This document shows positions 1 to 62,922 of a stretch of DNA of 64,000 nt, piece after piece (position 1 is the stretch's first letter; each line of letters starts with the position of its first letter). Origin of the DNA: Arabidopsis thaliana (lineage: Eukaryota; Streptophyta; Magnoliopsida; Brassicales; Brassicaceae). The DNA lies in assembly GCF_000001735.4 (NCBI RefSeq), contig NC_003074.8, positions 15,321,261 through 15,385,260 of the forward strand, read 5' to 3'. The notes below the pieces were generated by a model that saw only the letters and a program-made list of their open reading frames with translations, searched no databases and was not told the origin of the DNA. A program made the position numbers and the translations under genes.

Positions 1-2
1 AA

Positions 3-1529
3 GATGATGATGGGTGTGATGATTATCTTGGTGTGGATGGATCTATTGGGGGAAGTACCACGTATCCTACCACAGACGGTAGTGAAGGTATTGGCGAAGA
101 ATACGATTACAACAAGTGGAACGATGTAATAGTAGAAGAATATGTACAAGGAAATCTTGAGGAAGACATCAGTCTCACTCAACAGACTGCTCAACATCCA
201 GGGGAATTCAGTCGTTTATTGGAAACGTGTACGTACACGAGTGTTAGTGTACCTGGCGGAGATACAGGGGAATTCAGTCGTCTCTTGGAAACGTGTACGT
301 ACACTGGTCTTAGTGTACCTGGCGAAGAAACAATTTCTCCATTGGGTTACGGTACACGCTGCGAAGGGCAAAGGGATTCCAATCTTATTTGTATAAACGA
401 ACTCACCGGGGATGAAGTGATCGACGGTATTGGAGCTTCCTCAACTGGGACACAGAATGATAATGGGGTAGTTACCGCAGCTGAGTCTTACCAAGTGTAT
501 AATGAATTTCCTAAGTTACATGGTGGCGAGTTGGCGAATCTCGGTAACGATGCTGCTCCTGTGTTCGATGACTTACTCAATTTTCGAGCTGATGAGACAC
601 AGGTTGAAATCAGCACCACAGGCGAAACTTTGTTTGTTGAAAGTGTTTTTAAGAATAGAAAAGTCATGCAACAAACAATGTCTCTTCAAGCGATAAAGCA
701 ATGCTTTTGCTTCAAGCAACCTAAGTCATGTCCTAAAACATTGAAGATGGTGTGCGTTGATGAGACTTGTCCATGGCAATTGACTACTCGCGTCGTGAAG
801 GATTCAGAAAGTTTCAAAATCACTTCGTATGCTACGACACATACGTGTAACATCGACTCTCGGAAGAACTACAATAAACATGCTAATTATAAGCTCCTCG
901 GGGAAGTTGTGAGGAGCAGATACAGTTCTACGCAGGGTGGGCCGCGAGCTGTCGATTTACCACAGCTACTCCTAAATGATCTGAATGTGCGGATTTCATA
1001 TTCTACCGCTTGGAGAGCAAAAGAGGTTGTAGTGGAAAATGTAAGGGGGGATGAGATAGCAAATTACAGGTTTTTGCCGACCTATCTGTATCTTCTCCAA
1101 TTAGCTAATCCGGGTACAATAACACACCTACACTATACACCAGAAGATGATGGTAAGCAGCGCTTCAAGTATGTCTTTGTCTCTCTTGGCGCTTCTATCA
1201 AAGGTCTGATATATATGAGGAAGGTAGTTGTGGTAGATGGAACGCAGCTAGTCGGACCTTACAAAGGATGTCTCCTTATTGCATGTGCCCAAGATGGGAA
1301 CTTCCAAATATTCCCAATAGCTTTTGGTGTTGTTGATGGTGAGACCGATGCTTCTTGGGCATGGTTTTTTGAAAAGTTAGCTGAGATTGTTCCAGACAGT
1401 GACGATTTAATGATTGTCTCGGACAGACATTCATCTATATACAAAGGCCTAAGTGTTGTTTACCCGAGAGCGCATCATGGAGCATGTGCTGTTCACCTTG
1501 AGCCTAAGTTTCTGAGCCGGCCAATATAG
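3..1529 (+). pseudogene. VANDAL-like MULE transposase, N-terminal half
   Basis: The frame is already open at the window edge and has no ATG near position 33, so the true start lies upstream. Counted from position 33, the protein has an acidic low-complexity N-terminus (about 1-190). A MuDR-type zinc-finger region follows (about 245-290, CVDETCPW then HTC). Next is the start of the MULE DDE domain, with VVVVDGTQ giving the first catalytic Asp (about 400) and IVSDRHS the second (about 465). The reading ends just after HHGACAVHL, where the helical part, the last catalytic acid and the SWIM zinc finger of a full transposase (usually 700-900 residues) should follow. DNA downstream is AT-rich spacer. 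It therefore looks 3'-truncated and would not catalyse transposition. The order of blocks matches the transposase at 60.9-62.9 kb, which belongs to a related element. Confidence 0.85.
201..332 (+). repeat. 66-bp in-frame tandem duplication with 12-bp palindrome
   Basis: GGGGAATTCA recurs at 201 and 267, a period of 66 bp or 22 codons, so the transposase has two near-identical copies of a segment starting GEFSRLLETCTYT. Each copy carries the perfect palindrome GTGTACGTACAC, the same word that clusters in the noncoding DNA of this element. Confidence 0.9.
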
Positions 1530-2077
1530 TGTACGCTTCTGTGTTTTCTCGGTGTACGTAAGTTTATATATAATCCACCTGTAACTATGTACGTTGTGTA
1601 CATATGTTTAAACTCTACGTTCGTATAACTATGTACGTTTTTGTCTGTGTACGTGTTAAAGTTCATGTAATAAGGGAACATAGAGGTGGTTGCTCAATAT
1701 TTTGAGTAATTTGAAATAAGTTTTTTGAAAATCTAACTTATTCCCCCTCTTAAATGAACGGAGTTGGAGACATAGTTGGGTATATTGTGGTTGTGTTGGT
1801 ATTTAATGGAAAGGACGTAACTGTTGCTGTTTATTGTCAAATCAACGTTATAATTACCTTATATGACGGTTACCAGGCTATTACCAAAAATTTGAATCAA
1901 GTGTAGTTGGAACCGCATTAATAACTGTAGCCGTTCCAGATTTCCTCTATTTAAGTCTCCTCCTTTCCTTAATTTTATCCACAATCCTCATTCTAAACCC
2001 ATTTCTTGTGCCGGCAGTTATATCATTCACTAAAAAAAATTTAGTCTTTCGATTCGCTTGTTCTTGCTATCCGTGAG
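1530..2077. other. AT-rich spacer with TGTACG motifs, probable RPA-like promoter
   Basis: No coding signal. Five TGTACG sites lie between 1534 and 1650. The segment 1900-2077 directly precedes the ATG of the RPA-like gene and presumably holds its promoter and leader; I see no decisive TATA box. Confidence 0.5.
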
Positions 2078-3026
2078 ATGGAGGGGTTTCATATGGTCTC
2101 AGAATTGTGTTCTCTGATCACTGGGTGGCGAATATATGTCTTTGTCGTGAGAGTCTTCAAGAAGGTTATATCGCCCAACGTCTTCGAACTCGGCCTTATC
2201 CTGGCAGATTACGCGGTAATTTCCGTCAAATCATTATGTGTTTTTCTCGTTCATTCGCTTAACTTGTATATTAAACTGTCTACTATCATGTTCTGTATGT
2301 AAAGAATAACCGTATTGAGGCCACCGTTGATCGTCGCCTTGCTCCGTTTTACGAAGACCGATTCGTTGAAAATGAGTGGAAGACGATCACCTCTTTCTTG
2401 GTCCGTAAGTCAACTGACTCAGTCAGAGCAACAAAGCATGAATACGGCATACTATTTATGTATCGGACCGTCGTCGTTCAGGCCCCACCGAGATCACCAC
2501 CAGTTCCAGATTTCGATTTCGATCCCTTCGACTACATTTTGGAGAAATCTGCTTACAAGAACGTTTTAGTCGGTGAGGAGGAATAACTCCGATGCTTCAT
2601 TTATTACATTTTTGAAATTTTTTGTTTATTATCTTTGTTTCTCCATCATCTAGATGTCGTTGGAGCGTTAGTTGATGTTGGCGCATTGACTACAGACTAT
2701 TACGGTCTCAAACTGAGTTTCGAGATAAAAGATAGATAGTAAGTGTTCTTTTCATTTGTTTTATTTACAATGTCACTCTAAACGCTAACTGTCCTTATTT
2801 CTAACGTAGCAATAAAGTCTTGGAGTGCGAAGCCCGCAATCAACAGGCGGAGTACTTGGATGGTTACTTTCAGAGTTTGGGTAAGGGAAATTTTGTTGTC
2901 GCACTCAGCTTTTGGCGTCTAACCGAACTGTCTAACCCGAAGCTTGAGAGCCATGGTGCTATTTCAAAGGTGGTTGCCAATCCGGACAGACCAGAAGTTG
3001 CGGATATCTCGATGGTGGTGTTTTAG
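2078..3026 (+). CDS. RPA1-like OB-fold protein (DUF223 type), four exons
   Basis: Four exons join in phase with GT-AG introns: 2078-2215, 2305-2572, 2654-2738 and 2810-3026, giving 708 nt and 235 residues. The protein has the layout of the plant RPA70-like, DUF223-type single-strand-DNA-binding proteins. An N-terminal strand region (ITGWRIYVFVVRVFK) and a middle OB-like block (KHEYGILFMYRTVVV) are followed by the second OB fold starting DVVGALVDVGAL, and its last strands lie around FVVALSFWRLTEL. It lacks the C-terminal zinc finger of full RPA70. This family is greatly expanded in Brassicaceae and often rides on Helitrons and MULEs. Here it sits between the transposase fragment and accessory genes of a VANDAL-like region, so it is probably cargo. 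The clean reading across four exons suggests recent function or recent capture. Confidence 0.8.
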
Positions 3027-3552
3027 CTAGAGGGAATGAACCATTATTCTCCGTTTTAATATAATATAAGACTACATTTCAATTAAGTTTTCTTTCCCAG
3101 TTGTTGTTGTTGTTTCCATAAGAACCAAACTACATTTCAATCGTTGTTGTTTCCTGTTTCCGTTTAAATGTTAATCTAATTTGTTGTTTTATGTACGTGC
3201 CTTGTTTTATTGTTCAAATCCTCTCGCAATGTACGTATAGTTTCTGGTGTACGCTATCGTGTACGTATATTAATTTTGGTGCCTTCAACATCAAAAACTA
3301 TTAGATTTATACTTATGTTGTGTACGCAATTTCCCAATGTACGATAAACCAAGTTTAATGTACTATATAGTGTACGTAGACGAAGACATCTAGTAATACT
3401 TAAAGTGGTAATTCATTCAAAAGCCAGAAACATAAAAAGGACAGGCAGTTTATATAAAGGGAAATTCATAAGATAAATAAACTGGAACGATTCAAAAAAC
3501 ATAATTTTTTCAACGAAGCATACACATGTGTTACAAAATATGTGTGCATCCG
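3027..3552. other. Spacer rich in TGTACG motifs between convergent genes
   Basis: Seven TGTACG sites fall within about 180 bp (3192-3378), the densest patch in the window. The segment lies between the ends of the plus-strand RPA-like gene and the minus-strand gene at 3553. No ORF is convincing. Confidence 0.6.
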
Positions 3553-4200
3553 TCATACCAAAAGACTTGAGAGTAGAGCCGAGTAGAGTAGCTTAAACCT
3601 TAGCAGCTTTGCTTCTAGCAGAATATAGCAATCTCCTTGCCCTACGCAACTCGGCGGGTGGACAAACCTCCAAGACCTTTCCCAGCGGCGAGCATTTTCA
3701 GTGTGAAGCTGGCTGATGTGATACATCACCATCTCTGCAACCGCGTGGCCAGCTTCAAGGGTGGGTGTCATTTCCCAGAACTTTTCGCTGATCGGGAGGA
3801 AATCCAAGTGATTACCGGTACACGTAAGGAACAAACCGGTTGCAAAGCAAGCAAAGGGATCAGATAAAGCGACCGTTGTCATGACTGAAAGGCCCTGAGC
3901 TACTGTCACGAAGTTGCTCGCTTGGCGAACACCTTCAAGGTAAACCGCCGGGATGGATCCACGTTCTACAAGCAGCTCGAAGTATGACCGGAAGGTAGAC
4001 TCCGGTTGGAGTAACGACGGCCACGTCATGAATTCATCGATTGCAAGGGTGTTGATGTTACAACTGTAGACTAAGTTCCTTAGCGTCTCTATGGGAGTCT
4101 GGCTGACGGGGAGGTAGTTGACAAGTATGCTTATGGGGTTTGGCAATTGGATTCCTAGGTACAACTCGGTTGGAGGGGTTAGCGGAGGTAGGAAAGGCAT
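3553..4200 (-). CDS. At2g35280-like repeat-domain protein without F-box
   Basis: A single open frame of 215 residues starts at an ATG (4200). The middle part (about 70-150: FRSYFELLVERG, AVYLEGVRQAS, FACFATGLFLTCTGN) matches the TPR/Sel1-like helical region of the Brassicaceae At2g35280-like F-box family. In that family it reads as a file of helices with a YxxGL segment and ends in a Cys-rich tail. The N-terminal F-box is replaced here by a Pro-rich stretch. The Cys-rich tail is altered as well. It is related to the C-terminal domain of the gene at 5004-9686, from which it is separated by 800 bp. It may be a truncated family member or transposon cargo; function is unknown. Confidence 0.6.
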   Translation of the reverse strand: MPFLPPLTPPTELYLGIQLPNPISILVNYLPVSQTPIETLRNLVYSCNINTLAIDEFMTWPSLLQPESTFRSYFELLVERGSIPAVYLEGVRQASNFVTVAQGLSVMTTVALSDPFACFATGLFLTCTGNHLDFLPISEKFWEMTPTLEAGHAVAEMVMYHISQLHTENARRWERSWRFVHPPSCVGQGDCYILLEAKLLRFKLLYSALLSSLLV

Positions 4201-5003
4201 TGTTTTTCAAACGAGGAGGTTTAGACGGATTCGTGTATTCAACTAAGTGTGTTTGACATGAGTTTTAAAGAGGAGAATAACCATCAATGTAAGTGGGTGG
4301 GTGACGTGGATGTATATTTAGTGCATCATATTAGTAACTTTTAATTTAAACAAACTACTGTGTACCTCTCATAATCGCGTCGTGTACGTCTATAAAATAC
4401 TCATTACGTTTTCTGACAGAAGGTTGAGTTGACGTCTGTTTGTATTGCATATAAGTGGAACAATCTGGCTTCATGTATAGTGTTATATTAGGGGTCAACG
4501 CATTTACTAACAATCTTTTCAAATAAACATTAACTTACTTATTTTATCTGCCAAATCAATTGAGTACGTTGCTCGGGAACCGTGTACGTCTAATAGAGAT
4601 ATTAATGAGAGTGTGATGGAGGTCACTTCTAGAGTGTATTTGACAGCGAGTAATTAATATGGAGCGAAATCTTCTAGATATGGGTTATACGACGTCAAAT
4701 CAAATTTCCTTTCGTCTTCATTTACAAACTATATCGTCGCTCACTATGTAATCTTTATAGTTGGAATTAAACTATGCCACGTGTACATTATCATATATCG
4801 TGTACGTAGATATTTTATTATTTTATTATTATTTTGTGTTAATGATGTCTCATATTAGAGTAGTTTGAGCTAGTATGTTTGAATAAATTACGAAGTGGTA
4901 ATTATTAAAAGCAAACTTCCATTACTGATAATCAACGTAAAAAGCTCACATATTGTTGCATAGAAAACTTATAAATATGACAGGATCATGGCGAATGTGA
5001 GCT
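4201..5003. other. AT-rich spacer with TGTACG motifs
   Basis: No gene seen. TGTACG sites lie near 4383, 4583 and 4800. The segment separates two minus-strand genes and would hold the upstream region of the 3553-4200 gene. Confidence 0.5.
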
Positions 5004-8000
5004 CTACAGGATCTGGCTAATCCATTTAGCACACAACCAGATGTAACATTGGTTGCAAAGATTATTGAAGAGTCTCGATCTCATGTAACACATCTCCGTG
5101 CATTCAGGAGTGCTTACGTCACCACATTTCGGGTACGAAAAACTGTTAGCGTATGTATATTTTAAAGTATTACCATATTTCTTTATATCTTCTAGCACCT
5201 CCTCACAAATGTCACGTGCCTCCTCCGATTCCAAAGCATAATGGTTGCTTCCGAAGAGCCGAAGGTAGACACCACCCATGTGAGCATTACCAGCACATAT
5301 GTAAAGAATAGCGCATGCAAGGGTTGCAGCGGCGTTCCTTGGGGCGATTCGCTCTAAGTGTAGGATAGCTCCCTGAATGTCAGACTCATGTGTAACGAGA
5401 CGCAGTCCTTCATGGTAAATAGTCGTGGGGTTACCAGCTTGTAAGCACCGTTTGAAGAAGGGTCTATAGCGACCTTCGGAGTTGATGTCATTTGGATCGT
5501 GGCCTGCCGCGTAGAAGTCATAGGGATCGTTGCACATGCTGAAAATGTTTGCATCTTTGAGGACATCCCATTCACCAGGTGTTAGAAGGTTCGCAAAAAA
5601 CTCGTTGGGCACTTTGCGAAACCCGAAAAGAGTGTGAATCCTGTAAATCCAAAAAAAATATTTGATAACAACCTTAAGACTTGGAAAAATGATGATTGAG
5701 ATATTAAATAATCCATTTTAATATAATGTACTTACACAGAGGGTCCTTTAATGATATTGCTGAATTCCTCTACTTTTGAAGGGTCAACCATGTCCAGGGG
5801 GTTGTATGAGACATTTCCAGCCCTGATAACAACCTCTATCTGTTGAGTTGGTACATCGGGCACCAAAACTGTTTTTGCCTTAAAACCATGAGGATGGGCA
5901 TCATCCTGTTCATAGACAAGTTGCTTCTTCACTTTTTTTGGGACCTTTGGGGACGATTTTTTTTTTCTTTTGCTTCGACAGCAGCAGCATTGTCTGATTC
6001 ATCCTGTTAACAAATATGATTGTCAACAACAGTTTCATACGTTTTTCTATGTTTAAAATAGGTACATACATTATTTTTAGGAATATCGGTCTTGTCTGCT
6101 TCATCTGACCCTGGGTTAGGATCCTCAGTTCCTACAGACCCCTCGACAATACCCGGCTCTTCCATGACTACTTGTGCAAGTTAACGTACACAAGTCTATA
6201 TAATGTACACATATAATCCTATGCATGCTATTCCGAAAATAGGAATTGAAACACACAAATTGTTACCTCCACATCAGTAGTTGCAGCCAAATCACCAACG
6301 GCTTTGGTATCCTACTCCCGTATGACCTGCATAATATAAATTTTATACATTTGAACAGTAAATAGTACATTTTATTTGTTGCAAGAGTTAGCTTACATTG
6401 TTAACTACTTGAAATGGTGATGAGGGATCACTGTGGGTCTTCTCAGGTATTTCAACTTCCATCCTTGTCACTAATTTGGATTCTCCTGCCGCCTCAACCT
6501 GTAGAATTTATCATCGGAAAGAAACTTTTTAGTAATGTATGAAACAATATATATGTACACAGAACATAGTGACAAAAATGTACGTACACTTGTGCCAGGT
6601 ACGTGAGCTGTATCTCCATCAGAAGGCTCATAAGTTTCTTCTGACTCGCTGCCATTAGCTACAGTCGATGCACTGGCATCTCTTGCTTCTTCCTGAAACA
6701 AAAATAATTTGCAAAGTCTTATGGGCGTACACATATGGAAAAAGAACAAGTGACTAACACATACCTGTGCAGATGTTGAAGGTAAACCTGATGGATTGTC
6801 TACCATCTCTATGTCAGCATCAGCTATTTCATCGGCCCCTGTATGGGTACCAATTAAGCCAGGTTCAGCAACATCCTTTGGTCCATTATCCTGAAACATA
6901 GGCTACCATAGAGTTAAGCGTTAGATAAGTGGAGAAATTAATGTAATATATATGCATATAGTCATGGAAATCTGTATATAACGATTACCAGAAGATCTAC
7001 CTCTGAAACTCTTGCAGACACATTAGATGGAACTTCTTCCATCTCGGTGTCAACAGTAGCTTCTTCCACAGGCCTCTCTTCCTGTGTAATATAGACAGTC
7101 CAGACATTGAACCTAAGAAGACAGTCTTACCAACAACAATATTTCCTCTATCCTGAAACATAGTTTAACTAACTTCTTAAGCGAATATGTACGTACACCA
7201 TTTAAACAGATTGTTAAGAGTATTAGTAGACGACATACCAGATGGGATTGTGTGGATCCAGCATAAGGAACTATTAAAAATCCAGTGTCTAATATCTCTT
7301 CTTCAGCGGCCGAAGAATCCAATCCATCATTTGCAGTAAAATCACTTTCATTATTAGCGCCATACTGTATCGAAGTAGACAGTACAGTTATACATATGGA
7401 TTATAAAATATTTAGCAATGTACGTACATGACTTACCTGTTCATCAATGAATCCTTGCATATCTTCCTTATTGGAATCAGGTAGCTCAGTAGTGTCAACA
7501 GCAAAAGAAACATTTTTCTTCGGCTTTGAAGGTTTTCTTCTTCCGCCGACAGCAGTGGTATGTACTCCAGGGACATCCAAATCTTCCTCTTTGGAATTAC
7601 AGCCAACAGAAAGTGCAGGAGTGTCCACATCATGAGAAACACGAGTCAGCCTTGAAGACTTTCTCGTTCCAGTGCTTCCTTTTGTAGACATCCTTCTCGA
7701 TGGCTTCTTCGCAGTAACCGGTGCCTTATCCATAGAAGTAGGTGGTTCCCGCGAATCATGGGAATGTATGGTTTGTTCTGGCCTTTTGCCTTTTGGATCA
7801 AGGGCAGCACGTATCTGGTCACGGACAAAGTCTTTCATATCTTCATGCATTTGATACATTTGGTCTTCCAGCTCCTTGAAAGACCTCCTCATTTCAACAA
7901 TAAACCTCTCAGGCACAGGCTCTCCAAAACAATCCTCAGCGTTCTCTTCTTTATCACAGTCCATTTCAGATTTCTGTTTTTTCATAGCAGGTTCTTTAGG

Positions 8001-9686
8001 GCTCGGGCCCGGTGCATTTCGTTTCCTCTTAACATCTACAATAGACCAGTTGCTGCTATTAATTGGTTTTCTTCTGGGTGCAATACCAAAAAAAAATGTA
8101 AACAACCTTTATACTTATACTTACCTGTCTCTTCTAGTTGTGGTGGGCACAACTGCTTTGGTACTCTAGCATAGCCTCCAACCCATTCATCCTCCTGCCA
8201 CTGGTGCCCATCTATCAACAGTGCTTCAATGTAATCAACCCTTGGATCATCAACTTCATCATCCCATGAAAGAGATGGAGGACAAACATTATCAGCTGGT
8301 TTCACAATATAGTTGACCTCAACCTACACAAATAAGTATGTTAACCATAGATAATGTACATTTACTTATTATGTACGTACATACACAATTTAACACACCT
8401 CATCAGCAGCCTCACACTCCAAAATGCGAGATGTCCGGATTGCTCGCCGAGAGGCAAGACGATGGATAGACCTCTCAGCAAATGTCCTGTTAGGTACATC
8501 ATCAGGTCCTAGCTTAGCAATTGATGGGATTGTTTCGAAAGCTAAAAGCTGGAGAGCTAATGGGAAGCCATGGAGTGCATAAGACCCTACAAGTAAACCC
8601 CTTATTAGTTGTTGAGCATCGTAAGGAGTTTGGAAATTTGCTATCCTCCCCAAAGTACGGGTAAAGGACACCCTTCCCCATGGGTATTTGCAGAAGAACT
8701 CCAGGTTCTTAGTCATCTCGACAGTCTTCGAAGTAGGCCTGTTGGGGTTACTGTGGGCCGCTACCACACCGTCAACCAAAATAATAAGAGATAGTGCCAG
8801 TTGCTTCCACCCCTCCATGCTTTCCTCCTCCTGCAGCCAGCTCACCAAATCAGCAATTGTTGGAACCGTGTCCCCAAACCTCTCATCAAACAGAGTCTTC
8901 CAAACACTCTCACACTCAGGTTTCACACTGATAACATCATCAACGTCTTTCTTCTTGGGATACTTCCCACATTCCAGCCCACTTAGGATACTAAATTCTC
9001 TTAATCCAAATCTGATTGGATGACCGCCGAATACAATCCACATCTCATTCACCTTCTTTGTCACTAACTGACGGCATATTAGTCCAAGGACAAGCTTAGC
9101 ATTGAAAGATGCCTTGTTTTTGGGTATTTTAAAAAGTTCCCCAAATGGAGAATCGAGAAGAAACTGCATCTCTGGTTTCCCCTTTAGTACATTTGCTATG
9201 TCAGAAATGTACTCCGGTTTAGAGTACGCGTTCATCTTTGTCTCGGAAGGGTACCGGTCTAGAGCAAAGAGTCTTGGTGGTAACTCTTCAACTGTAAGAT
9301 CTTCAGTCGGAGCAACACTTGGACTACCTGCAATTAAAAGTCATATACTGTTAAGCAAACCGAAGTAGTGTACGTACACAGACATTTTCCAGATTATAAC
9401 TCAAAATCATATTTTTGGCGGAAACAGAGATTTCCAATTCTACTTCTCAATTTTTCATCCTAAAGATATGCTAAATTCCGACAAATTCTAACCCTTTAAT
9501 CAAACAAGCTTTACAATTCTGATACACCCAAAGACAACAAACGGTAAATTAGAGATTCTAACCCAGTTCCTCCGTTGCCTTTGTCGAAGAGCGTTTTCTC
9601 CGCGGGGAAACTCTTAATACCCGCTTCTCCTTCCCTGGACCATGCTGCTTCCTCGGGACTTCGTCGTTAGCTTTATTCCCAGCCAT
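5004..9686 (-). CDS. DUF1985 VANDAL/KAONASHI-type protein fused to At2g35280-like domain
   Basis: The start is ATG at 9686 (MAGNKANDEVPRKQ, basic N-terminus). Exons that join in phase: 9686-9563, 9327-8399, 8323-8125, 8035-7437, 7364-7239, 7081-7001, 6890-6765, 6692-6588, 6498-6397 and 6311-6267. Less certain exons follow around 6170-6070 and 6004-5746, then the last exon from about 5640 to the stop at 5004. Exon 2 encodes DUF1985 (LPPRLFALDRYPSE, then LSGLECGKYPKKKDVDD), the N-terminal domain of Ulp1-like genes carried by Arabidopsis MULEs. Exons 3-10 give basic nuclear-type segments (DVKRKRN, KKPSRRM) and acidic ones. Instead of a Ulp1 catalytic domain with His/Asp/Cys, the last exon leads from VPNEFFANLLTPGEWD into FYAAGHDPND, an At2g35280-like helical domain with a Cys-rich tail. 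One phase problem lies at a run of ten A on the coding strand (5957-5966), possibly a frameshift. VANDAL VANC proteins are the closest role I can suggest. Confidence 0.65.
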
Positions 9687-9689
9687 AGC

Positions 9690-10850
9690 TAAAGATGCTA
9701 TCTCGCTGGAGGTTCAAATTTTGCCGGAATAAACAGTAACTTTCTCTTGGCTTCGCCGGGAAAAACAGTAACTTTCACTTCCCCGGATGTGGGAGTTCAG
9801 TGGCTCAATTCAACTACCCAACAATTTGAAGTTATGTCGAATTTTGAAGCAATGGATACTGAATTTCGTTTCGCTTTCTGATTCTCTCGCAAATCTCTCC
9901 GTTACTCTCTTCTCTTTTTCGTTTTCTCGGGTTTCTTCGTTTCAGTTTTTTTTTTTTTGTCGTTTTCAAAACTGAACGCATCAACTAAACCGAAACCAAC
10001 TGCTGTAGGGTCTGGTTTACGCCATCAACTCAACCGATACGAACTGCTGCACGGTTTGGTTTGTGCCATTATTAAGTTTTCCCAGGGTAATTTGGTCCGA
10101 AATTGAATGAAAACACAAAACGTGAAAACCAGTTCTCACTTTGACAAACGGTGAGAGCAAATCTTTTTTCGTCCACTTCTGTGAAAATTTCTTTTGATTC
10201 AATCGGTCTGCCACGTGACTCAAACAAACTTCAGTAGATCTATGATTCGTAACTGTTTTAGGTAAATTAGTAAACTATACTACTATAATTTAGTTGTAGA
10301 ACCGAATTTATGTTTGGTCCCATATATTGTCTAGATCAGCTTCAAGAGCAAATTTTGACAGATGTATGAAATTGAATCTAAAACAAAAAGTTTATGAATT
10401 GGAGTAGGCAAGTTGCACTCACTTCCAATAATAATCACATATGTTTCTATATGGCAATGGGGTCACATATTTGGTCTATTATTGGGGTAACCTGTCATAG
10501 GAGTGTCCAGTCCAGTTTAACCAATTTAAACCGAACTAAAACCATTAAAAATTGATCCGCAAATGAAAGAAAAAATAATACCGATCTAGATTTTTCCATC
10601 TCTGAGCTGAGCTTACGATAACCCAACACAAACTGTAGAAGTAAACCTCTAATGTATTTTCTCAATAACCGAAGCCATACCAAACCGGACCAAAATATGG
10701 TATACTTTACTTGCTGTCTAGCTACATGTCATTTGTGTCTTCATTTTCTTATGACTTGACCAAGTGTGTTTTGAAGCTTGATTCTTGAATAACATTGGAA
10801 GCTACTTTATTTTTTTTTGTAAACCAACAATGGAAGCTACTATAGTTCTA
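9690..10850. other. Upstream region of the DUF1985 gene and spacer
   Basis: No convincing gene. The first 250 bp upstream of the ATG at 9686 are CT-rich and probably leader and promoter. Beyond about 10.25 kb the sequence is ordinary AT-rich spacer. I could not find the outer end of the MULE or a matching target-site duplication. Confidence 0.4.
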
Positions 10851-54400: not shown

Positions 54401-55003
54401 AGGAGCTTCTCAAGATGGATCATCACAAGGAAGATTTGGTTTCTCTCTTTAATTCATTCGCTTTGCTCAAGACTGAAAAACATGTTTCAGAATTTGTTTT
54501 TTTTTTAACACGTTTCTGATTCCGGTTCCTTAGTTTCGATCATGTGTTTTTCAACTTTTTTTGTTCTCTTTGCTTTGTAATACCTTTTCTTTCACGTTTT
54601 ACACATCCACAAACTTCATTTTCAGAATTTAAACTCTACTTAGAATACAAAGTTTCAATTCAAACTTCACGAAAATTCAATCTGCAATTTTTAAAACACA
54701 ACAAACTAAGAAAGCATTAGTTTTAGAAACGATTACATGACAGTTATTCTCTTCACATTCTCACTGTTAGAATTCTCTGGGTATTTAATTTGGGGAAGAA
54801 AAGGAAAAGAAGACCATGAGAATCGATATAAACTAATTTTGGCTTTTAATTTTAACGACACACGTTTACTATTTAACGGTGATAACAATGAAGTCTAATT
54901 TTGGTAAGTCAAAATGAAATAGAGGGTTTATTATGTGTCTGAGGTAATTGGAGAATTAATCTGTGCATTTTGAATACTTTAGGAATTAATTAAGCATTTT
55001 CCC
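51460..55003 (+). mobile_element. MULE B, complete element inserted in MULE A
   Basis: The 3.5-kb element starts GGGAAAATGCTTAATTA, and the right end is its inverted match. TIRs of about 150 bp (51460-51609; 54856-55003) are roughly 85-88% identical by eye. The flanking duplication is GCCAGGAAAG (51450-51459 and 55004-55013), 9-10 bp as expected for Mutator. Removing the element and one duplicate copy gives back the MULE A exon frame, so it entered an intact exon. Confidence 0.93.
51787..54452 (+). pseudogene. MULE B MURA-type transposase
   Basis: Exon 1 is 51787-51821 (MTGRRRKLPIRR) and exon 2 starts 52018. An acidic region (to about 52350) is followed by a MuDR zinc-finger block (CTHWIEEKCPWRVYC, about 52510). 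The DDE domain has GLDTAFMKWDIKGQ (52990), FPIAWAVVE and IISDKHM (53190), then an intron to 53275. A SWIM finger CGCGYWQLNGIPCMHA lies near 53830-53880. A zinc knuckle CTNYKQEGHNKTRC (54137) and an AT-hook-like KRPRGRPRKDQ precede a last exon (54355-54452) with a repeated QDGSSQ. Lesions: frame change near 52900, TAA at 53481, frame change at an A run near 53685. These few lesions suggest recent inactivation. Confidence 0.88.
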
Positions 55004-55841
55004 GCCAGGAAAGTGTATTAACTGCGGAAAAATTGACACTTTCAAAGCCCTTGAAGAAGTTATCCGGCAAAGATTCTCGATGGTTATTAACAACGTGTTT
55101 GTTGAGATGTCATACTGGGCTGATGACGTTTTGGTGAGGCTCAATGGTCAGGAAACACCTCCGACGGAAATCAAAGATGATTGGTCTTTCAGAATGTTCA
55201 AATCTCTTCTAAGGTCTGACAGTTCTGTGAATCTTTTTGTCACCTTTAAAAGAATGGTAGACGATAAGCTTGAGTTCCTAGATCCCCTTGAAATTGCTGT
55301 TCCGCCTTACAACAGAGGCTTCCCACTGATACAAGGTGATAACACTGTGAAGGAGTTGCAACCCTTTATTGTTGGTGTTCCAGATAAAACGACCGTACAC
55401 CATGAAAATGAGTTTGACGTACACCAGCAACTTGAACATTCTCTTCGAAAACCAAATCCAGTTTCAGACAACAGTAGTCCAGCTGGAGATGTCCGAGACC
55501 TGGTCATTTGGGATGGTACTGTTGATAACTCACTAATAGCTCACATTGAAGAAATTGAAGCTCAGTTAAAAGATGTAAATCCACAAGAAGACGTTGTTGA
55601 TGAGGATATCGAAAGCAATGATGATTCTAATGAGTTCAGTGAAGAAGACGATGAGCCAGACTATCAATCTGGATCAAAAGAGGATGAAGATGATGACGTC
55701 TGGTCTGAGACAGTTTTAGACAAGAATGTGGCGTTGAACAATGATGATTTCACAGATCCCCCTCTAAGAAAGGTACAAAACTATACTGATCTTCTTCGTG
55801 AAATGGATGATTTTGTCTGCCATCCTCTTTTGGTAGACAAC

Positions 55842-56244
55842 TGTGAATAAGTGACCCAAATGCATATTATCCTTAAGTATAGGAAAGCCTCTATTCAAGT
55901 GAGAAGGTCTTCGGTTTTGGGTTAGTCAAACCTTAACACGTGAGAGCACACGTGCGAACGACTAAAGCTGAGAATCAGCTTTATAATCCAAGTCTCTGTT
56001 TTCTTCTGTTGTAGAGTTTGTTTTGTAACCCAAAGAGAGAGAGAGAGAGAAGAGAGAGATTCTTGTAATCAAGCAATATTATTTGTGGCTTAGTGGATTC
56101 CGGAGAGAGCCTCCGGCAAGACGTAGGGTTCCGTTGTGGAGCCTAAACTCGTAAAACTCTTGTGTCTTTTCTTTCTTTGAAATCAAACGAGAGTCGTGAG
56201 TGAAGTGAGCTAGATTGTTCTTCGATTCAAGTCAGAATCGTACA
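55842..56244 (+). repeat. Copia 5' LTR
   Basis: Begins TGTGAATAAG and ends GAATCGTACA. It contains a GA-rich run near 56036 and is the partner of 60545-60949. Confidence 0.95.
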
Positions 56245-56247
56245 AAT

Positions 56248-56259
56248 TGGTATCAGAGC
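56248..56259 (+). other. Copia primer-binding site
   Basis: TGGTATCAGAGC, three bases after the 5' LTR, complementary to the 3' end of initiator tRNA-Met as in most plant Copia elements. Confidence 0.9.
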
Positions 56260-56299
56260 TCCAGGTTCTCGCGATAGCTGATCATTGTTACAAGGATAA

Positions 56300-59200
56300 C
56301 GAATTCGAAGATCAAGATATCGGTGTTCGATGGAACTGGTGATTTCTCACTGTGGAAAACACGCATGTTCTCTCATCTTCGAATCCTTGGCTTGAAGGAT
56401 ACTCTGGTGGAACAAGCTCCGTTCCCACCACTGAAAGAGGAAGATGAATCAGATCCGGATAAGAATAAGAAACAAATCGAAGAAGAAACTGAGAGAATCG
56501 AATGATGTGAGAAAGCTATGGACATTATCTTATTCAATGTCGGTGATAAGGTACTGAGAAAGATTGATCACTGCAAGACTGCAGCAGAAGCATGGGCGTT
56601 GCTTGAACGATTATATATGGTAAAGACTTTACCGAATCGTGTGTATCTACAGCTCAAGGTTTACAATTACAGGATGCAGGAATCGAAAACACTAGATGAG
56701 AACATTGATGAGTTCTTGAAGATGATATCAGACCTAAGTAATCTGCAGATCTAAGTCCCCGATGAGGTACAAGCGATCTTGATTTTGAGCTCTCTTCCAG
56801 CCAAATATGAAACATTAAAAGAAACTTTGAAATATGGAAGAGAAGGTCTACAACTTGAAGAAGTGATAAGTGGAGCAAAATCCAAGGAATTAGAGTTTCA
56901 GGCAGAATCCAGTTCTAAGTCTACAGCAGAAGGTCTTTATGTTAAAGGAAATCAGAACAACAATTCAAAGTCAAGATCTCAAGATGGTAAGAAGGTATGT
57001 TGGATATGTGGGAAAGAAAGTCATTTCAAGAGACAATGTTACAAGTGGCTAGAGAAGAATAAGTCAGGTGGGAATACACAAGATACATGTGAGTCTGGAC
57101 TTGCAAAAGATGATGCTCAAGACTTGGTTGGTCTAGTAGCCTCAGAGGTAAACCTAAGTGAAAAACAGCTCGACCAGAATGAATGGATCATGGACACCGG
57201 TTGTTCTTTTCATATGACACCAAGAAGAGATATATTCATTGAGATTGAGGAGCTAACTTCAGGAAAAGTTAGAATGGCGAACAACTCGGTTTCAGAGGTA
57301 AAAGGAATTGGTAAAGTAAGATTCATCAACACAGATGGAACCACATTTGTGTTACATGATGTAAGATACATGCCTGGAATGTCTCGAAACCTCATCTCAA
57401 TGGGTACTTTAGAAGCAAAAGGGTGTGTGTTTAAAGGAAATGATGGTGTACTTGAAGTAATGCAGGGAAATACAGTGTTCATGAAAGGTCTACGGAGAGC
57501 TTCATTATACATCCTGCAAGGAGAAGCTAAAAGGTCAGAAGCCATGGTAGCTGAGTCAGAAGAGTCGGATATGGATTTAACTCATGTATGGCACAACAGA
57601 CTCGGTCATGTAGGACAGAAGGAAATAGATGAATTAGCCAAGAAAGAATGTTTTGGCAATGACAAAGTCTCAAGTCTGAAATTCTTTGAAGACTGTGTCT
57701 TCGGAAAAACACACAAAGTGAGCTTTGGGCAAGCTCAACATGTCACAAAGGAGACGTTAGACTATGTGCACTCAGATTTATGGGGATCACCAAATGTGCC
57801 TTTGAGTCTTGGTAAATGTCAGTACTTTCTCACCTTAACAGACGACTGGTCCAGGAAAGTTTCAATCTACTTCCTTAAAACCAAAGACGAAGCATTCGAT
57901 GCCTTTCTATTATGGAAAAAGATGGTAGAAGTTCAGAGTGAAAGAAAGGTGAAGAGGTTACGCACCGACAACGGTCTAGAGTTTTGCAATCATAAGTTTA
58001 ATGATTTTTGCAAACAAGAGGGAATGGTGAGACACAGGTCGTGTACTTACACACCACAACAAAACGGAATTGCTGAGAGGCTTAACAGAACTATCATGAA
58101 CAAGGTGAGAAGTATGTTGAGTGAGAGTGGTCTTGGTCAAAGGTTCTGGGCTGAAGCAGCTTCAATAGCAGTGTATCAGATCAACAGAACACCTTCTTCA
58201 GCAATTGACTTCCAGATTCCAGAAGAAAAGTGGACCTCAGGAACACCAGATTTGTCAGGACTCAGAAGATTTGGATGTCTAGTGTTCATCCATTCAGATA
58301 AAGGAAAATTGAATCCTAGAGCAAAAAGAGGTATCTTCACAGGTTATCCTGAGGGTGTGAAAGGATTCAGAGTGTGGCTTCTAGAAGACCAGAGATGCAC
58401 GATTAGCAGGAATGTTGTCTTCAGAGAAAGAGTGATGTATAAAGACATCATAGCACAAGAAAAATCAGGTATGTCCTCTAACCTGTTTGATTTGTCTACT
58501 GATGAGTCTGTTAGTAAAATTGCAGAAACAGGTAGAACGAAAAGGGACTTATCCCCAGGTGGAGCTATTGATCAAGGTGGAGAAAACACACCTAAACAGA
58601 ATACAAATGAGACAACACCAGAGGCAAGAACAAGGACTCCTGTTAATCGTCAAATAGCAATTCACAGAGCAAAAAGACAGATTGTCAGACCTGCCAGACT
58701 AGAAGACTACATCACAGATGAAGCTGAACTAGATCAAGTAGCTGGATATCCCTATATGGCCACTGAGGATGGAGAAAAGTCAGAACTAGGAAGCTTTCAG
58801 GAAGCTTTAGATGATGTTGATCAAGACAAGTGGATTAAAGCATCTGATGAGGAGATGGAATCTCTCATGAAAAACAAAACCTTGATACTGGTGGACAGAA
58901 ATAAAGAACAGAAACCTATTGGTTGTAAATGGGTGTTCAAGAGGAAAGCTGGGATAGCAGGAGTTGAGGGTCCCAGGTTTAAGGCAAGGCTTGTAGCAAA
59001 AGGTTATTCTAAGAAGGAAGGGATAGATTACCAAGAAATATTTTCCCCAGTAGTGAAACATGTCTCCATCAAATTTTTTCTAAGTATGGTAACCCATTTT
59101 GACATGGAGCTTCAGCAGATGGATGTAAAAACGGCGTTCCTTCATGAAACAATATACATGGATGAAACAATATACATGGAACAACCTGAGGGTTATATTG

Positions 59201-60354
59201 ATGAAAAGAATCCAGAAAAGGTGTGTCTATTACATAGGTCTTTCTATGGCTTGAAACAGTCACCAAGGCAAGGGAACACCGGGTTCAATGAATTCATGGA
59301 GGCTCATGGTTACAAGCTGAGCTCATATGTCAGCTGTGTGTATTTCAAGAAGTTTGCAGGTGGTGATTATGTGTTCATATTGCTATACGTAGACGACATT
59401 TTGATAGCTTTAAAGAACATGAAGCATGTAAGTGATCTCAAAGAGCTGCTGGGATCCGATTTTGAAATGAAGGATCTAGGTGAGGCAAATAAAATTTTGG
59501 GTATGGAGATAAACAGAGACAGACTTAAAGGTACTCTTTCTATCTCCCAGGAAGGTTATCTATTGAAGCTGTTGGGAACATTCAACATGGATCAATCCAA
59601 GCCGGTTCTAACGCCAATGGGAATACATTTTATATTGAGGTCTACTACAGATGAAGAAGTTAAAATTCAATATGAGGCAATGAGAACAGTTCCATATCAG
59701 AGTGCAATGGGAAGTCTGATGTATGTTATGATAGGTACAAGGCCTGATCTAGCACATTCTGTTGGTCTTGTCTGCAGGTTTATGAGCAAACCTCTTAAAG
59801 AAGATTAACAGGCAGTCAAGTGGGTCCTTAGGTATATTCAGGGATCATTGAAGAGAAAGCCGTGTTACACTAATAAGGGAGATTTCATAATTCAAGGCTA
59901 CTGTGATTCAAATCATGGTGCAGATCAAGACGGTAGAAGGTCAACTTCAGGAGTTGTATTCACTGTTGGTGGTAACGTGGTTAGTTGGAAGTCTAGCTTA
60001 CAGAAAGTAGTAGCTTTGTCATCAACAGAAGCTGAGTATATGGCATTGACAGAAGCATCAAAGGAAGCAGTTTGGTTACTAGGACTCATGAATGAACTCG
60101 GTTTTGAACAGGAAACAATTGACATTTACAGTGACTCACAGAGTGCCATTGCATTGGCTAAGAATGCAGTTCATCATGACAGGACTAAGCATATAGAGAT
60201 CAAGTACCATTTCATTAGGGAATTGATCTACAGTGGTTTAATAAGAGTGAAGAAGATTGTCACAGAGACCAATCCTGCAGATATATTGACAAAGGTTGTA
60301 CCAGTGGGAAAACTTGAGGAAGCTTTGGAGTTTCTCAGAGTTACAGAGAAATAA
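56300..60354 (+). pseudogene. Copia gag-pol region (fossil)
   Basis: Parts in order: Gag, with a CCHC knuckle (CWICGKESHFKRQC, about 56998); aspartic protease (WIMDTGCSFHMT, about 57185); the integrase zinc-binding region and catalytic core (about 57590-58250); reverse transcriptase with the YVDD site (LLYVDDILIA, about 59380-59410); and RNase H (about 59880-60300). The coding DNA is interrupted at about three places and is treated as a fossil. Confidence 0.93.
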
Positions 60355-60526
60355 GAAGAGCGGGTTAAGCCTCAAAATATAAAGCTGAGTGGGTTTACTC
60401 AGGAGATATGAAGCTCGGTGGGATTACTCAGGAGATAAGAAGTTGAGTGAGTTTACTCAATTGGTAAAAGCTGGGTTGGTTTAACCAGGTCCGGAGGTGG
60501 AGTCCAGAAAGCTAAGTCATGGCATT

Positions 60527-60544
60527 AGGGTCAAGGTGGAGAAT
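60527..60544 (+). other. Copia polypurine tract
   Basis: AGGGTCAAGGTGGAGAAT-like purine-rich run directly before the 3' LTR, where plus-strand priming occurs in this family. Confidence 0.75.
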
Positions 60545-60949
60545 TGTGAATAAGTGACCCAAATGCATATTATCCTTAAGTATAGGAAAGCCTCTATTCA
60601 AGTGAGAAGGTCTTCGGTTTTGGGTTAGTCAAAGCTTAACACGTGAGAGCACACGTGCGAACGACTACAACTGAGAATCAGCTTTATAATCCAAGTCTCT
60701 ATTTTCTTCTGTTGTAGAGTTTGTTTTGTAACAGAAAGAGAGAGAGAGAGAGAGAAGAGAGAGATTCTTGTAATCGAGTAATATTCTTTGTGGCTTAGTG
60801 GATTTCGGAGAGAGCCTCCGGCGAGACGTAGGGTTCCGTTTTGGAGCCTGAACTCGTAAAACTCTGGTGTCTTTTCTTTCTTTGAAATCAAATGAGAGTC
60901 GTGAGTGAAGTGAGCTAGATTCTTCTTCGATTCAAGTCAGAATCGTACA
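60545..60949 (+). repeat. Copia 3' LTR
   Basis: Begins TGTGAATAAG and ends GAATCGTACA. It is about 96% identical to the 5' LTR, with one small length difference in the GA run. Confidence 0.95.
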
Positions 60950-62922
60950 ACAACCCTCTTCTGTCTCCTGTCCAAGTTAAGAGGAGAAAAGTCTCACAAA
61001 AAGAGTTGTCCTCCAATCAGAAGGAAGAACAGGCGGCAGCCTTAAAGAGAGGGATAACATTGTCTGAAATATATGGCTTTCAAGACGTTGAACCAATGTT
61101 CATTGAGAGTGACTCACCCGATTTCAGAAGTCATAACATTGATCTTTCTAAAGAAGACGATGTTCTGTTTAAAGGAAGGGTTTTTGAAACCAAGGACGAG
61201 TTCAAAGTGGCACTGTCTATTTATGCAATCAATCAAATTTTCCGGTTTAGGTTTGTGAGATACGCCAAGTGTTATCTTGTAGCACAATGTGTTGACAAGA
61301 AATGCGACTGGCGGGTGTACGCGCATAAGATTGGTGATAGCGATGAGTACGAGGTTAGGAAAGTGAAGCTTCAACATGTGTGTGATGTGGAAACCCGAGG
61401 TCAATTTACCGTGCACGCCACTTCTAAGATAATCGCTGCTTTATTACGGTCGAAGTATGTCAATGTCACAACTGGTCCTAGAGCGAGAGATCTACCCTAA
61501 GCTGTTTTAGACGAGCATAATGTGACAACTTCTTATTGAAAATGCTGGAAAGCCAAGGAATTGGCAATATCTTCTGCTCAAGGGACAGAGGAGACTTCTT
61601 ACTTACTTTTGCCCCTATATTTGCATTTATTGCAACATGCAAATTCAGGGACATATTACCATTTAGAGATAGAGGATGATGATGTCAGAGATAAAAGGTT
61701 TAAGTATGCCTTTGTCTCACTGGGTGCAAGTATACAGGGTCTGAAATTCATTCGGCGTGTAGTTGTTGTGGATGGGACTCATCTTCAAGGGAAATACCAT
61801 GGGTGCTTATTAACTCCAAGTGGACAAGATACAAATTTCCAAGTATTTCCAATAGCTTTCGCTATAGTGGACAGCGAGAATCATAATTCTTGGACGTGGG
61901 TTTGATCTAACTATCATATCTGACCAGTCAATATACCATGCTAAGTCACTAGTGTACACTCAGGCGCACCACGTCTGTTGTCTTGTACACCTGAGGCGCA
62001 ATGTGAAAAGCTTGTATAAAGGAATGTCCGGACTTGTATGGAAAGCTGGGGAGATGTTCAGAGTTAATGATTTTAAGAAGGCATATGCACGTATTAAACG
62101 AAGGAAGCCTGAATGTTGGGAGTACCTTGAGGCTATTGGTGTTGAACATTGGACTCGTGCACACTGCAAAGGGGAGCAGTATAACCTAATGTCTAGCAAC
62201 ATTGTTGAATCTCTAAACAATGCCTTACTACCGGCTAAAGACAGCCCAGTTGTTGCTCTTATTGAATGTTTTTGGAAGATGCTTAGTAGGTTGTTTGAAG
62301 CCCGCAAGAAGAAAGTGTCTAATACCCTTGGATTGATTCCTGCAGAAGTTGAGAAAATCTTATTGAAGCAGCTTCCAGACTCAATAGGTGTAAGTGTTCG
62401 AAGTGCATCGGCTTGTGATTATGAAATAACAGCAAAAGATAGAGGAAAATTCTACGTATCATTAGAGAAACGTACATGCACTTGTCACTCATTTCAGCTA
62501 CTACAAATTCCTTGCCCACACGCAATGGCTGCTGCCCATAGCAGGGGAATAGAATACCGATCACTTGTTGGCTGCATGCATAAGAACGACATATGGGCTC
62601 CAACGTTTGACGGTGTTATCCTATCGGTTCAAGACCCATCAGAGGTGGGAGTACCTGATAGCATCAGGTTCCGCTTCATTCTTCCACCTAAGACTAAACG
62701 TCCTTCCAGGAGGCCCCCTAAAGTTAGTATACCATCAACCGAAGAGTTTGAGGTTAACATTCTTGCTCTTCATTTATATTATGATGTAACTAATTCATAC
62801 TCACAACAAAGTATGATTATTTATGCATGAAGAAACAGAATACTGGTACAAGGAAGAACAATTGCGGAAGGTGCAATGGTTTAGGATACAACAGGGTTCA
62901 GTGCCCAGTTCCGCTGAAATGA

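What the first reader, a model, noticed from the sequence alone, without database searches (positions are those of the whole stretch)
220..9385. TGTACGTA-type motif array confined to a VANDAL-like MULE region
About 24 TGTACG/CGTACA loci lie in 9.2 kb against roughly 16 in the other 54 kb by eye, an 8-9 fold density difference. They favour spacers and introns and often extend to the palindrome TGTACGTACA. In known VANDALs the VANC anti-silencing protein acts on a short motif multiplied in its own family's noncoding DNA. Here a DUF1985 gene of the same region could be the partner, which would make this a family-specific self-recognition system. The link between protein and motif is inference.
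Basis: partly seen in the sequence, partly recalled or inferred. Interest (0 to 1): 0.82.

Follow-up and report, generated by a model that had tools for sequence, protein, structure and literature searches.

The report
Transposon's repeated self-recognition DNA word
A plant jumping gene (a VANDAL-type element, apparently of Arabidopsis) carries dozens of copies of one short DNA word, mostly in its non-coding parts, and these are most likely landing sites of a protein it encodes to undo its own silencing; this kind of system is known, and this looks like a further member of it.

Summary
In detail: 24 TGTACG/CGTACA loci in 220-9385 against 17 in the other 54.6 kb (8.4-fold); words of this motif lead all 6-, 7- and 8-mers. 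The array lies in one MULE, flanked by perfect 9-bp duplications, from 1,240 bp upstream of the window to 10193, with a MULE transposase domain and a DUF1985 gene. A longer copy on C1 (14,781 bp) also has a Ulp1/C48 exon, absent from the window copy, and 54 motif loci, 15 in a 66-bp tandem array. Motif and DUF1985 clade go together: 27 of 27 clade loci fetched carry at least 3 TGTACG; six more distant DUF1985 loci carry 0-1; VANDAL21 0; VANDAL6 5 scattered. In the one sister copy examined, 22 of 27 loci lie in DNA not alignable to the C1 copy, and another tandem array multiplies the same word. The DUF1985 protein is a homologue of solved VANC21 (E=2e-12). Best reading: target array of a VANC-type anti-silencing system. 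Binding was not tested, and motif columns are not significantly more conserved. The kind is known (Hosaka 2017; Sasaki 2022, not readable here).

The parts
1..10193 (.). VANDAL-type MULE, window part (element starts 1,240 bp upstream of the window; C3:15320020-15331453, 11,434 bp)
   Evidence: 94-97% blastn match to a second copy on C1 and perfect 9-bp flanking duplication TTGATTCAA on both sides
10194..10202 (.). right copy of the 9-bp target-site duplication
   Evidence: sequence
3..1529 (+). VANA-like MULE transposase ORF, truncated against the C1 copy (about 0.95 kb missing; the SWIM part seen in the C1 copy is not in this ORF)
   Evidence: PF10551 E=2.6e-17
196..327 (+). 66-bp tandem duplication inside the transposase ORF, one TGTACGTACA palindrome per unit
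   Evidence: the repeat finder D1
1530..1653 (+). cluster of 5 same-orientation TGTACG sites (1530, 1553, 1588, 1632, 1648)
2045..3026 (+). apparent multi-exon gene with a split DUF223 domain
   Evidence: PF02721 E=1.3e-13 and 7.5e-20 on two neighbouring ORFs; the third ORF (2805-3026) has no family
3192..3376 (+). cluster of 7 same-orientation TGTACG sites
3553..4206 (-). ORF of 217 aa with no Pfam family above its cut-off; a similar-looking ORF lies in motif-bearing stretch L047
   Evidence: likeness by eye
4383..4806 (+). three same-orientation TGTACG sites (4383, 4583, 4801)
5004..5717 (-). TPR_27-like ORF (below the Pfam cut-off)
   Evidence: PF23310 E=1.8e-5, 24.8 bits vs cut-off 27
8390..9340 (-). 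DUF1985 exon of the VANC-type gene
   Evidence: PF09331 E=4.1e-35; PDB 9lnj VANC21 E=2.1e-12
7401..8108 (-). further open stretch of the VANC-type gene region; the palindrome at 7419 lies just past an inferred splice donor
   Evidence: by eye
6185..9378 (.). 7 motif loci in and around the VANC-type gene: palindromes at 6579, 7188, 7419, 8372, 9369 and single sites at 6185, 6726

Best explanation
The RTGTACG(TA) array is the cis half of a VANC-type anti-silencing system. The element's DUF1985 protein (probably joined to a Ulp1/C48 domain in longer copies) binds the word where it is dense in non-coding DNA of its own and sister copies and removes silencing marks there, so that the element's genes can be expressed. 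Shown here: the array, its restriction among the DUF1985 loci examined to one clade, its presence in further stretches, its density in DNA that does not align between families, different tandem arrays of the same word, and homology of the protein to VANC21. Inferred: that this protein binds this word, that demethylation follows, and that the C48 exon is spliced to the DUF1985 exon. The window copy, lacking the C48 exon and part of the transposase, is more likely a target than a full driver.
For: Enrichment. All 18 close copies carry 2-4 palindromes within about 3.9 kb (these copies are nearly identical and not independent). All 27 loci L005-L031 carry at least 3 TGTACG, 26 of 27 a palindrome; six distant DUF1985 loci (L032-L034, L053-L055) carry 1, 0, 0, 0, 1, 1 TGTACG and no palindrome. 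VANDAL21 stretch: 0 TGTACG in 16 kb but 16 of its own YAGTATTAY; VANDAL6 stretch: 5 scattered TGTACG and no palindrome in 16 kb, 7 of its own AGTTGTMC. The same unbiased 8-mer count ranks ACGTACAC first in the C1 copy (39 seen, 0.7 expected), TACGTACA first in the sister copy L038 (25, 0.54), and AGTATTAC, within the published VANC21 motif, first in VANDAL21. Tandem arrays: 66 bp x 5.5, 5.5, 3.5, 2.5 and 4.5 in five copies; 114 bp x 3.1 in L038; 21-bp spaced repeats in L044. Motif loci in DNA not alignable to the C1 copy: 22 of 27 (L038), 24 of 24 (L044), 19 of 22 (L046), 11 of 21 (L045), 0 of 5 (L037). Density 5.88 vs 1.26 loci per kb outside vs inside ORF-called coding DNA of the C1 copy. 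Homology to VANC21 (control 79). C48 exon in the C1 copy and in L038. Genome-wide, ACGTACA followed 4-30 bases on by ACGTACAC: 222 matches vs 26 for the reversed control (arrays give several matches each).
Against: No binding or methylation data. Substitution at motif columns among 16 close copies is lower but not significantly (5 of 620 vs 536 of 34,499 letters, p=0.18; CpG columns 3 of 124 vs 57 of 1,938, p=1.0). Genome-wide the bare palindrome is not much in excess (494 vs 408 for its reversed control), so only density sets the elements apart. No general helical phasing of spacings (five of six sets not significant, L048 p about 0.02 uncorrected). The 8-mer method did not put the published VANC6 word among the six listed for VANDAL6. 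Nine of 54 loci in the C1 copy lie in ORF-called coding DNA. L037 (DUF1985 77-78% identical) has only 5 loci in 10 kb, all in its alignable part. The 27-row fork of the tree has support 86/79 only. Other proteins of the element could be the binder.
Confidence: 0.77

Rival explanations
1. Sites for the element's own transposase, as short subterminal motifs are in Ac/Ds or En/Spm (recalled).
For: The element has a MULE transposase. At the VANA-side end sites come within about 145 bp of the tip (C1 copy 15725 of 15869; window copy -1101).
Against: At the VANC-side end of the C1 copy the first site is about 870 bp inside, and the densest block is an internal array; sites are spread over the whole element.
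Confidence: 0.08
2. GTAC-core sites for host SBP/SPL transcription factors (consensus TNCGTACAA, recalled), used to borrow host expression.
For: CGTACA shares the GTAC core (recalled knowledge). The sister family is less strict at the flanking base (40 of 60 purine, so 20 of 60 could fit).
Against: The A that SBP proteins prefer after CGTACA would be a T before TGTACG; instead a purine stands there at 64 of 64 sites in the C1 copy, 31 of 31 here and 130 of 133 in close loci, against 18 of 27 background sites.
Confidence: 0.06
3. Neutral by-product: a word spread by descent and by slippage of tandem repeats, without a binder.
For: Most close copies are nearly identical; tandem arrays clearly spread the word; motif columns are not significantly more conserved.
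Against: The same word is dense in DNA of L038, L044, L045 and L046 that does not align to the C1 copy and sits in array units of 66, 114 and 21 bp, while VANDAL21, VANDAL6 and six distant DUF1985 loci lack such density.
Confidence: 0.06
4. The binder is another protein of the element, for example that of the DUF223 gene at 2045-3026, with the DUF1985 protein acting elsewhere.
For: DUF223 is found in the window copy and in L047; such domains are related to OB folds of replication protein A (recalled).
Against: VANC21 and VANC6 bind their words through the VANC protein (PMC5735166), and the DUF1985 gene here is homologous to VANC21.
Confidence: 0.05

Closest known systems
VANC21 / VANDAL21 (Hiun) anti-silencing system, Arabidopsis thaliana
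   Same: MULE with transposase and DUF1985 gene; short word dense mainly in non-coding parts and rare in other VANDAL families; tandem arrays that differ between copies (PMC5735166: Results, Discussion and the second part of Methods read)
   Different: Different word (YAGTATTAY vs RTGTACGTA); the word here is often palindromic and always holds a CpG; DUF1985 exons only about 25% identical; the C1 copy has a Ulp1/C48 exon, not found at VANDAL21; element about 15 kb with further DUF223 and TPR-like ORFs
VANC6 / VANDAL6-VANDAL8 system
   Same: Word shared between related families and also found in another element (AT9TSD1); array structure (PMC5735166)
   Different: Word AGTTGTCC/AGTTGTAC; DUF287 in an ORF downstream of DUF1985; no C48 match in the stretch examined
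Kaonashi (KIU) Ulp1-bearing VANDALs and the VANC systems surveyed by Sasaki et al. 2022 (EMBO J e110070)
   Same: DUF1985 and Ulp1/C48 in one element; a 2026 review states that KIU-carrying Vandals recognise motifs in other KIU-carrying Vandals (PMC13317346, passages seen)
   Different: Whether this word is listed there is unknown: the 2022 paper is not held (only its reference entry seen). I recall its abstract speaking of about ten systems

Membership tests
VANDAL (non-TIR MULE) | MULE/MuDR transposase | tested here: met
   PF10551 E=2.6e-17 in the window copy; MULE and SWIM in the C1 copy
VANDAL (non-TIR MULE) | 9-bp target-site duplication | tested here: met
   TTGATTCAA (window copy) and TATTTTCTA (C1 copy), both 9 of 9; two copies examined
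VANDAL (non-TIR MULE) | no long terminal inverted repeats | tested here: met
   by eye on the ends printed: tips differ, a short subterminal similarity remains; no separate search made
VANC-type anti-silencing system | DUF1985 protein homologous to VANC21 | tested here: met
   PF09331 E=4.1e-35; PDB 9lnj VANC21 E=2.1e-12
VANC-type anti-silencing system | short word enriched in the element's own non-coding DNA and rare in other VANDALs | tested here: met
   other VANDALs examined: VANDAL21, VANDAL6 and six distant DUF1985 loci; shared with a sister family and L044-L048
VANC-type anti-silencing system | word carried in tandem repeats that vary among copies | tested here: met
   66-bp array, 2.5 to 5.5 units in five copies, chosen because one search showed paired sites there; the window copy lacks this array, other copies not examined for it
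VANC-type anti-silencing system | arrayed in the same orientation | tested here: met
   C1 copy: 38 of 44 non-palindromic sites read CGTACA on the VANC strand; window: 15 of 17
VANC-type anti-silencing system | protein binds the word | not testable with these tools
   needs EMSA, DAP-seq or ChIP-seq
VANC-type anti-silencing system | expression causes loss of DNA methylation at motif-bearing copies | not testable with these tools
   needs a transgenic line and bisulfite sequencing
KIU (Ulp1-bearing VANC) | Ulp1/C48 exon in the DUF1985 gene | tested here: inconclusive
   C48 ORF downstream of DUF1985 on the same strand in the C1 copy (PF02902 E=1.8e-71) and in sister copy L038; splicing to DUF1985 not shown; no match in the window copy

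The most novel reading that the evidence does not exclude
A Ulp1-bearing VANC that recognises a CpG-containing, often palindromic word (TGTACGTACA), unlike the CpG-free words of VANC21 and VANC6. Binding could then be gated by methylation of the site itself, giving a bistable on/off switch, and the word is shared by two VANDAL families and by shorter elements, so one protein could unsilence a guild of elements.
Probability: 0.25. Interest if true: 0.72.

Novelty: new member of a known kind. Interest (0 to 1): 0.42.

Why it matters
[quoted passage not shown] The word holds a CpG, so methylation sensitivity of binding can be asked directly. The sister families give a natural test of how word and protein change together.

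Tried and rejected
Conservation of motif columns among 16 close copies (L021 and L022 left out): not significant. A first attempt mixed strand orientations and its conservation numbers were discarded; its coding/non-coding count is kept. Helical phasing of spacings: none in general. AlphaFold2 of the DUF1985 exon alone: mean pLDDT 40, not usable; Foldseek on it gave no match at E<=0.001. Naming the Repbase family: not done, no tool for it. Reading Sasaki 2022 and Fu 2013: not held. Literature: one search found 0 papers with ACGTACAC, TGTACGTACA or GTGTACGTA as whole words; (at least 3 of TGTACG, CGTACA, VANDAL, VANC) found 599, of which 20 were listed, none with VANDAL.

The VANDAL21 and VANDAL6 places were recalled and then checked by content (VANDAL21 also 79).
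Full report
OBSERVATION. The window holds 24 TGTACG/CGTACA loci in 220-9385 and 17 beyond, 8.4-fold by density. Shuffles of the region give 3.4 +/- 1.9 occurrences (maximum 11 of 500) against 31 seen, and words of this motif lead all 6-, 7- and 8-mers in an inside/outside comparison. The base before TGTACG is a purine at 31 of 31 sites. Of the 24 loci 19 lie outside open stretches of 120 aa or more, two in the transposase ORF and three in open stretches of the DUF1985 gene region.

THE ELEMENT. The window lies at C3:15321261-15385260 of a 119.66-Mb genome that I take to be Arabidopsis thaliana. A second copy on C1 (L035+L036) aligns at 94-97% over most of the element. Both copies are flanked by perfect 9-bp duplications: the window copy runs from 1,240 bp upstream of the window to 10193 (11,434 bp), the C1 copy is 14,781 bp. 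Against the C1 copy the window copy lacks about 0.95 kb of the transposase region and about 2.6 kb (C1 copy 5757-8330) with the C48 exon, a TPR-like ORF and the 66-bp array, and has about 240 bp instead that align only in part; which copy changed was not worked out. No C48 match is found in the window. Genes seen: MULE transposase, DUF223 gene, two further ORFs, DUF1985 gene.

THE MOTIF IN RELATIVES. A DUF1985 search of the genome lists 127 matches, of which the best 30 were fetched. All 18 close copies (L005-L022) carry 2-4 TGTACGTACA within about 3.9 kb, and L023-L028 carry 1-3. In a tree of 32 rows the 27 motif-bearing rows fall apart from L032-L034, VANC21 and VANC6; support is 86/79 for the 27-row fork and 100/100 for the split from VANC21/VANC6, root at the midpoint. 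Three more distant DUF1985 loci (L053-L055) have 0, 1 and 1 TGTACG in 6 kb. Controls: the VANDAL21 stretch (16 kb) has 16 YAGTATTAY and no TGTACG; the VANDAL6 stretch (16 kb) has 7 AGTTGTMC and five scattered TGTACG with no palindrome. The unbiased 8-mer count recovers the published VANC21 word as top word in VANDAL21, but the published VANC6 word is not among the six listed for VANDAL6. Genome-wide the palindrome occurs 494 times against 408 for its reversed control, so it is its density, not its presence, that marks these elements.

RENEWAL OF THE WORD. The C1 copy has a 66-bp x 5.5 array with up to three sites per unit; four other copies, picked because one search showed paired sites there, have 5.5, 3.5, 2.5 and 4.5 units. 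The sister copy L038 has a 114-bp x 3.1 array, and L044 has 21-bp spaced repeats of the palindrome. With sensitive blastn, 22 of 27 motif loci of L038, 24 of 24 of L044, 19 of 22 of L046 and 11 of 21 of L045 lie in DNA that does not align to the C1 copy; in L037 all 5 align. So the word is kept while the surrounding sequence differs, which common descent alone does not easily explain. L044-L048 were picked from the clusters. L045 and L048 match the element's ends and part of the transposase region, L046 matches transposase-region pieces, L044 and L047 only short stretches; I read them as short non-autonomous relatives, by inference. Genome-wide, ACGTACA followed 4-30 bases on by ACGTACAC matches 222 times against 26 for the reversed control.

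WHERE THE SITES SIT. In the C1 copy 45 of 54 loci lie outside ORF-called coding DNA (5.88 vs 1.26 per kb); 15 loci are in the 66-bp array. The coding set was drawn from ORFs, not transcripts. Of 44 non-palindromic sites 38 read CGTACA on the VANC strand. The purine before TGTACG holds at 64 of 64 sites of the C1 copy and 130 of 133 in close loci, but only 40 of 60 in sister loci, against 18 of 27 background sites.

THE PROTEIN. The DUF1985 exon matches the solved protein VANC21 (PDB 9lnj, 9lnk) over residues 48-275 at E=2.1e-12; the control exon at C2:10003208 is VANC21 (E=2.9e-170). I saw no titles of those entries, so not whether DNA is present. A C48 ORF lies downstream of DUF1985 in the C1 copy and in L038, with weaker matches in the motif-poor L054 and L055 and none at VANDAL21 or VANDAL6.

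MECHANISM. For VANC21, binding to a dense short word in non-coding DNA and loss of methylation there are published (PMC5735166: Results, Discussion, second part of Methods read; PMC10398659: introduction and passages read). The anatomy here matches closely, so the best reading is a VANC-type target array served by the DUF1985(-Ulp1) protein. Binding and demethylation are inferred. Against or neutral: no significant extra conservation of motif columns, no general helical phasing, nine loci in coding ORFs, sites close to the VANA-side tip as a transposase site would be, and alternative binders in the same element.

KNOWN OR NEW. The kind is known. A 2026 review (PMC13317346, passages seen) says Ulp1-bearing Vandals recognise motifs in their own group, citing Sasaki et al. 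2022, which is not held. This word may be listed there. Searches for it in the held library showed no VANDAL paper with it. I therefore file it as a new member of a known kind, with the CpG-bearing palindrome and the sharing across two families as its distinctive points.

Noticed in passing
window 55832-60950: Copia-type element with two LTR-like direct repeats (95% identical, about 4.7 kb apart) and a 1,017-aa pol-like ORF (named by eye), lying between an unassigned ORF at 54990-55850 and MuDR-type ORFs at 60919-62830; apparently inserted into a MULE. Its LTR ends supply two of the 17 outside sites.
   Followed up: partly
L054 (C1:16954501-16960500): A more distant DUF1985 locus (41% identical) with a C48 match shows its own enriched word AACACAAC/GTTGTGTT (8 seen, 0.34 expected), a candidate word of another system.
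   Followed up: no
L045 (C2:7288501-7296500): Two motif-bearing short elements in inverted orientation (inverted repeats of 584, 457 and 382 nt, 90-93% complementary), a possible hairpin-RNA source against this family.
   Followed up: no
window 5004-5717 and L035:6776-7594: TPR_27-like ORFs below the Pfam cut-off, related pieces occurring more than once in the element, possibly captured host gene parts.
   Followed up: no
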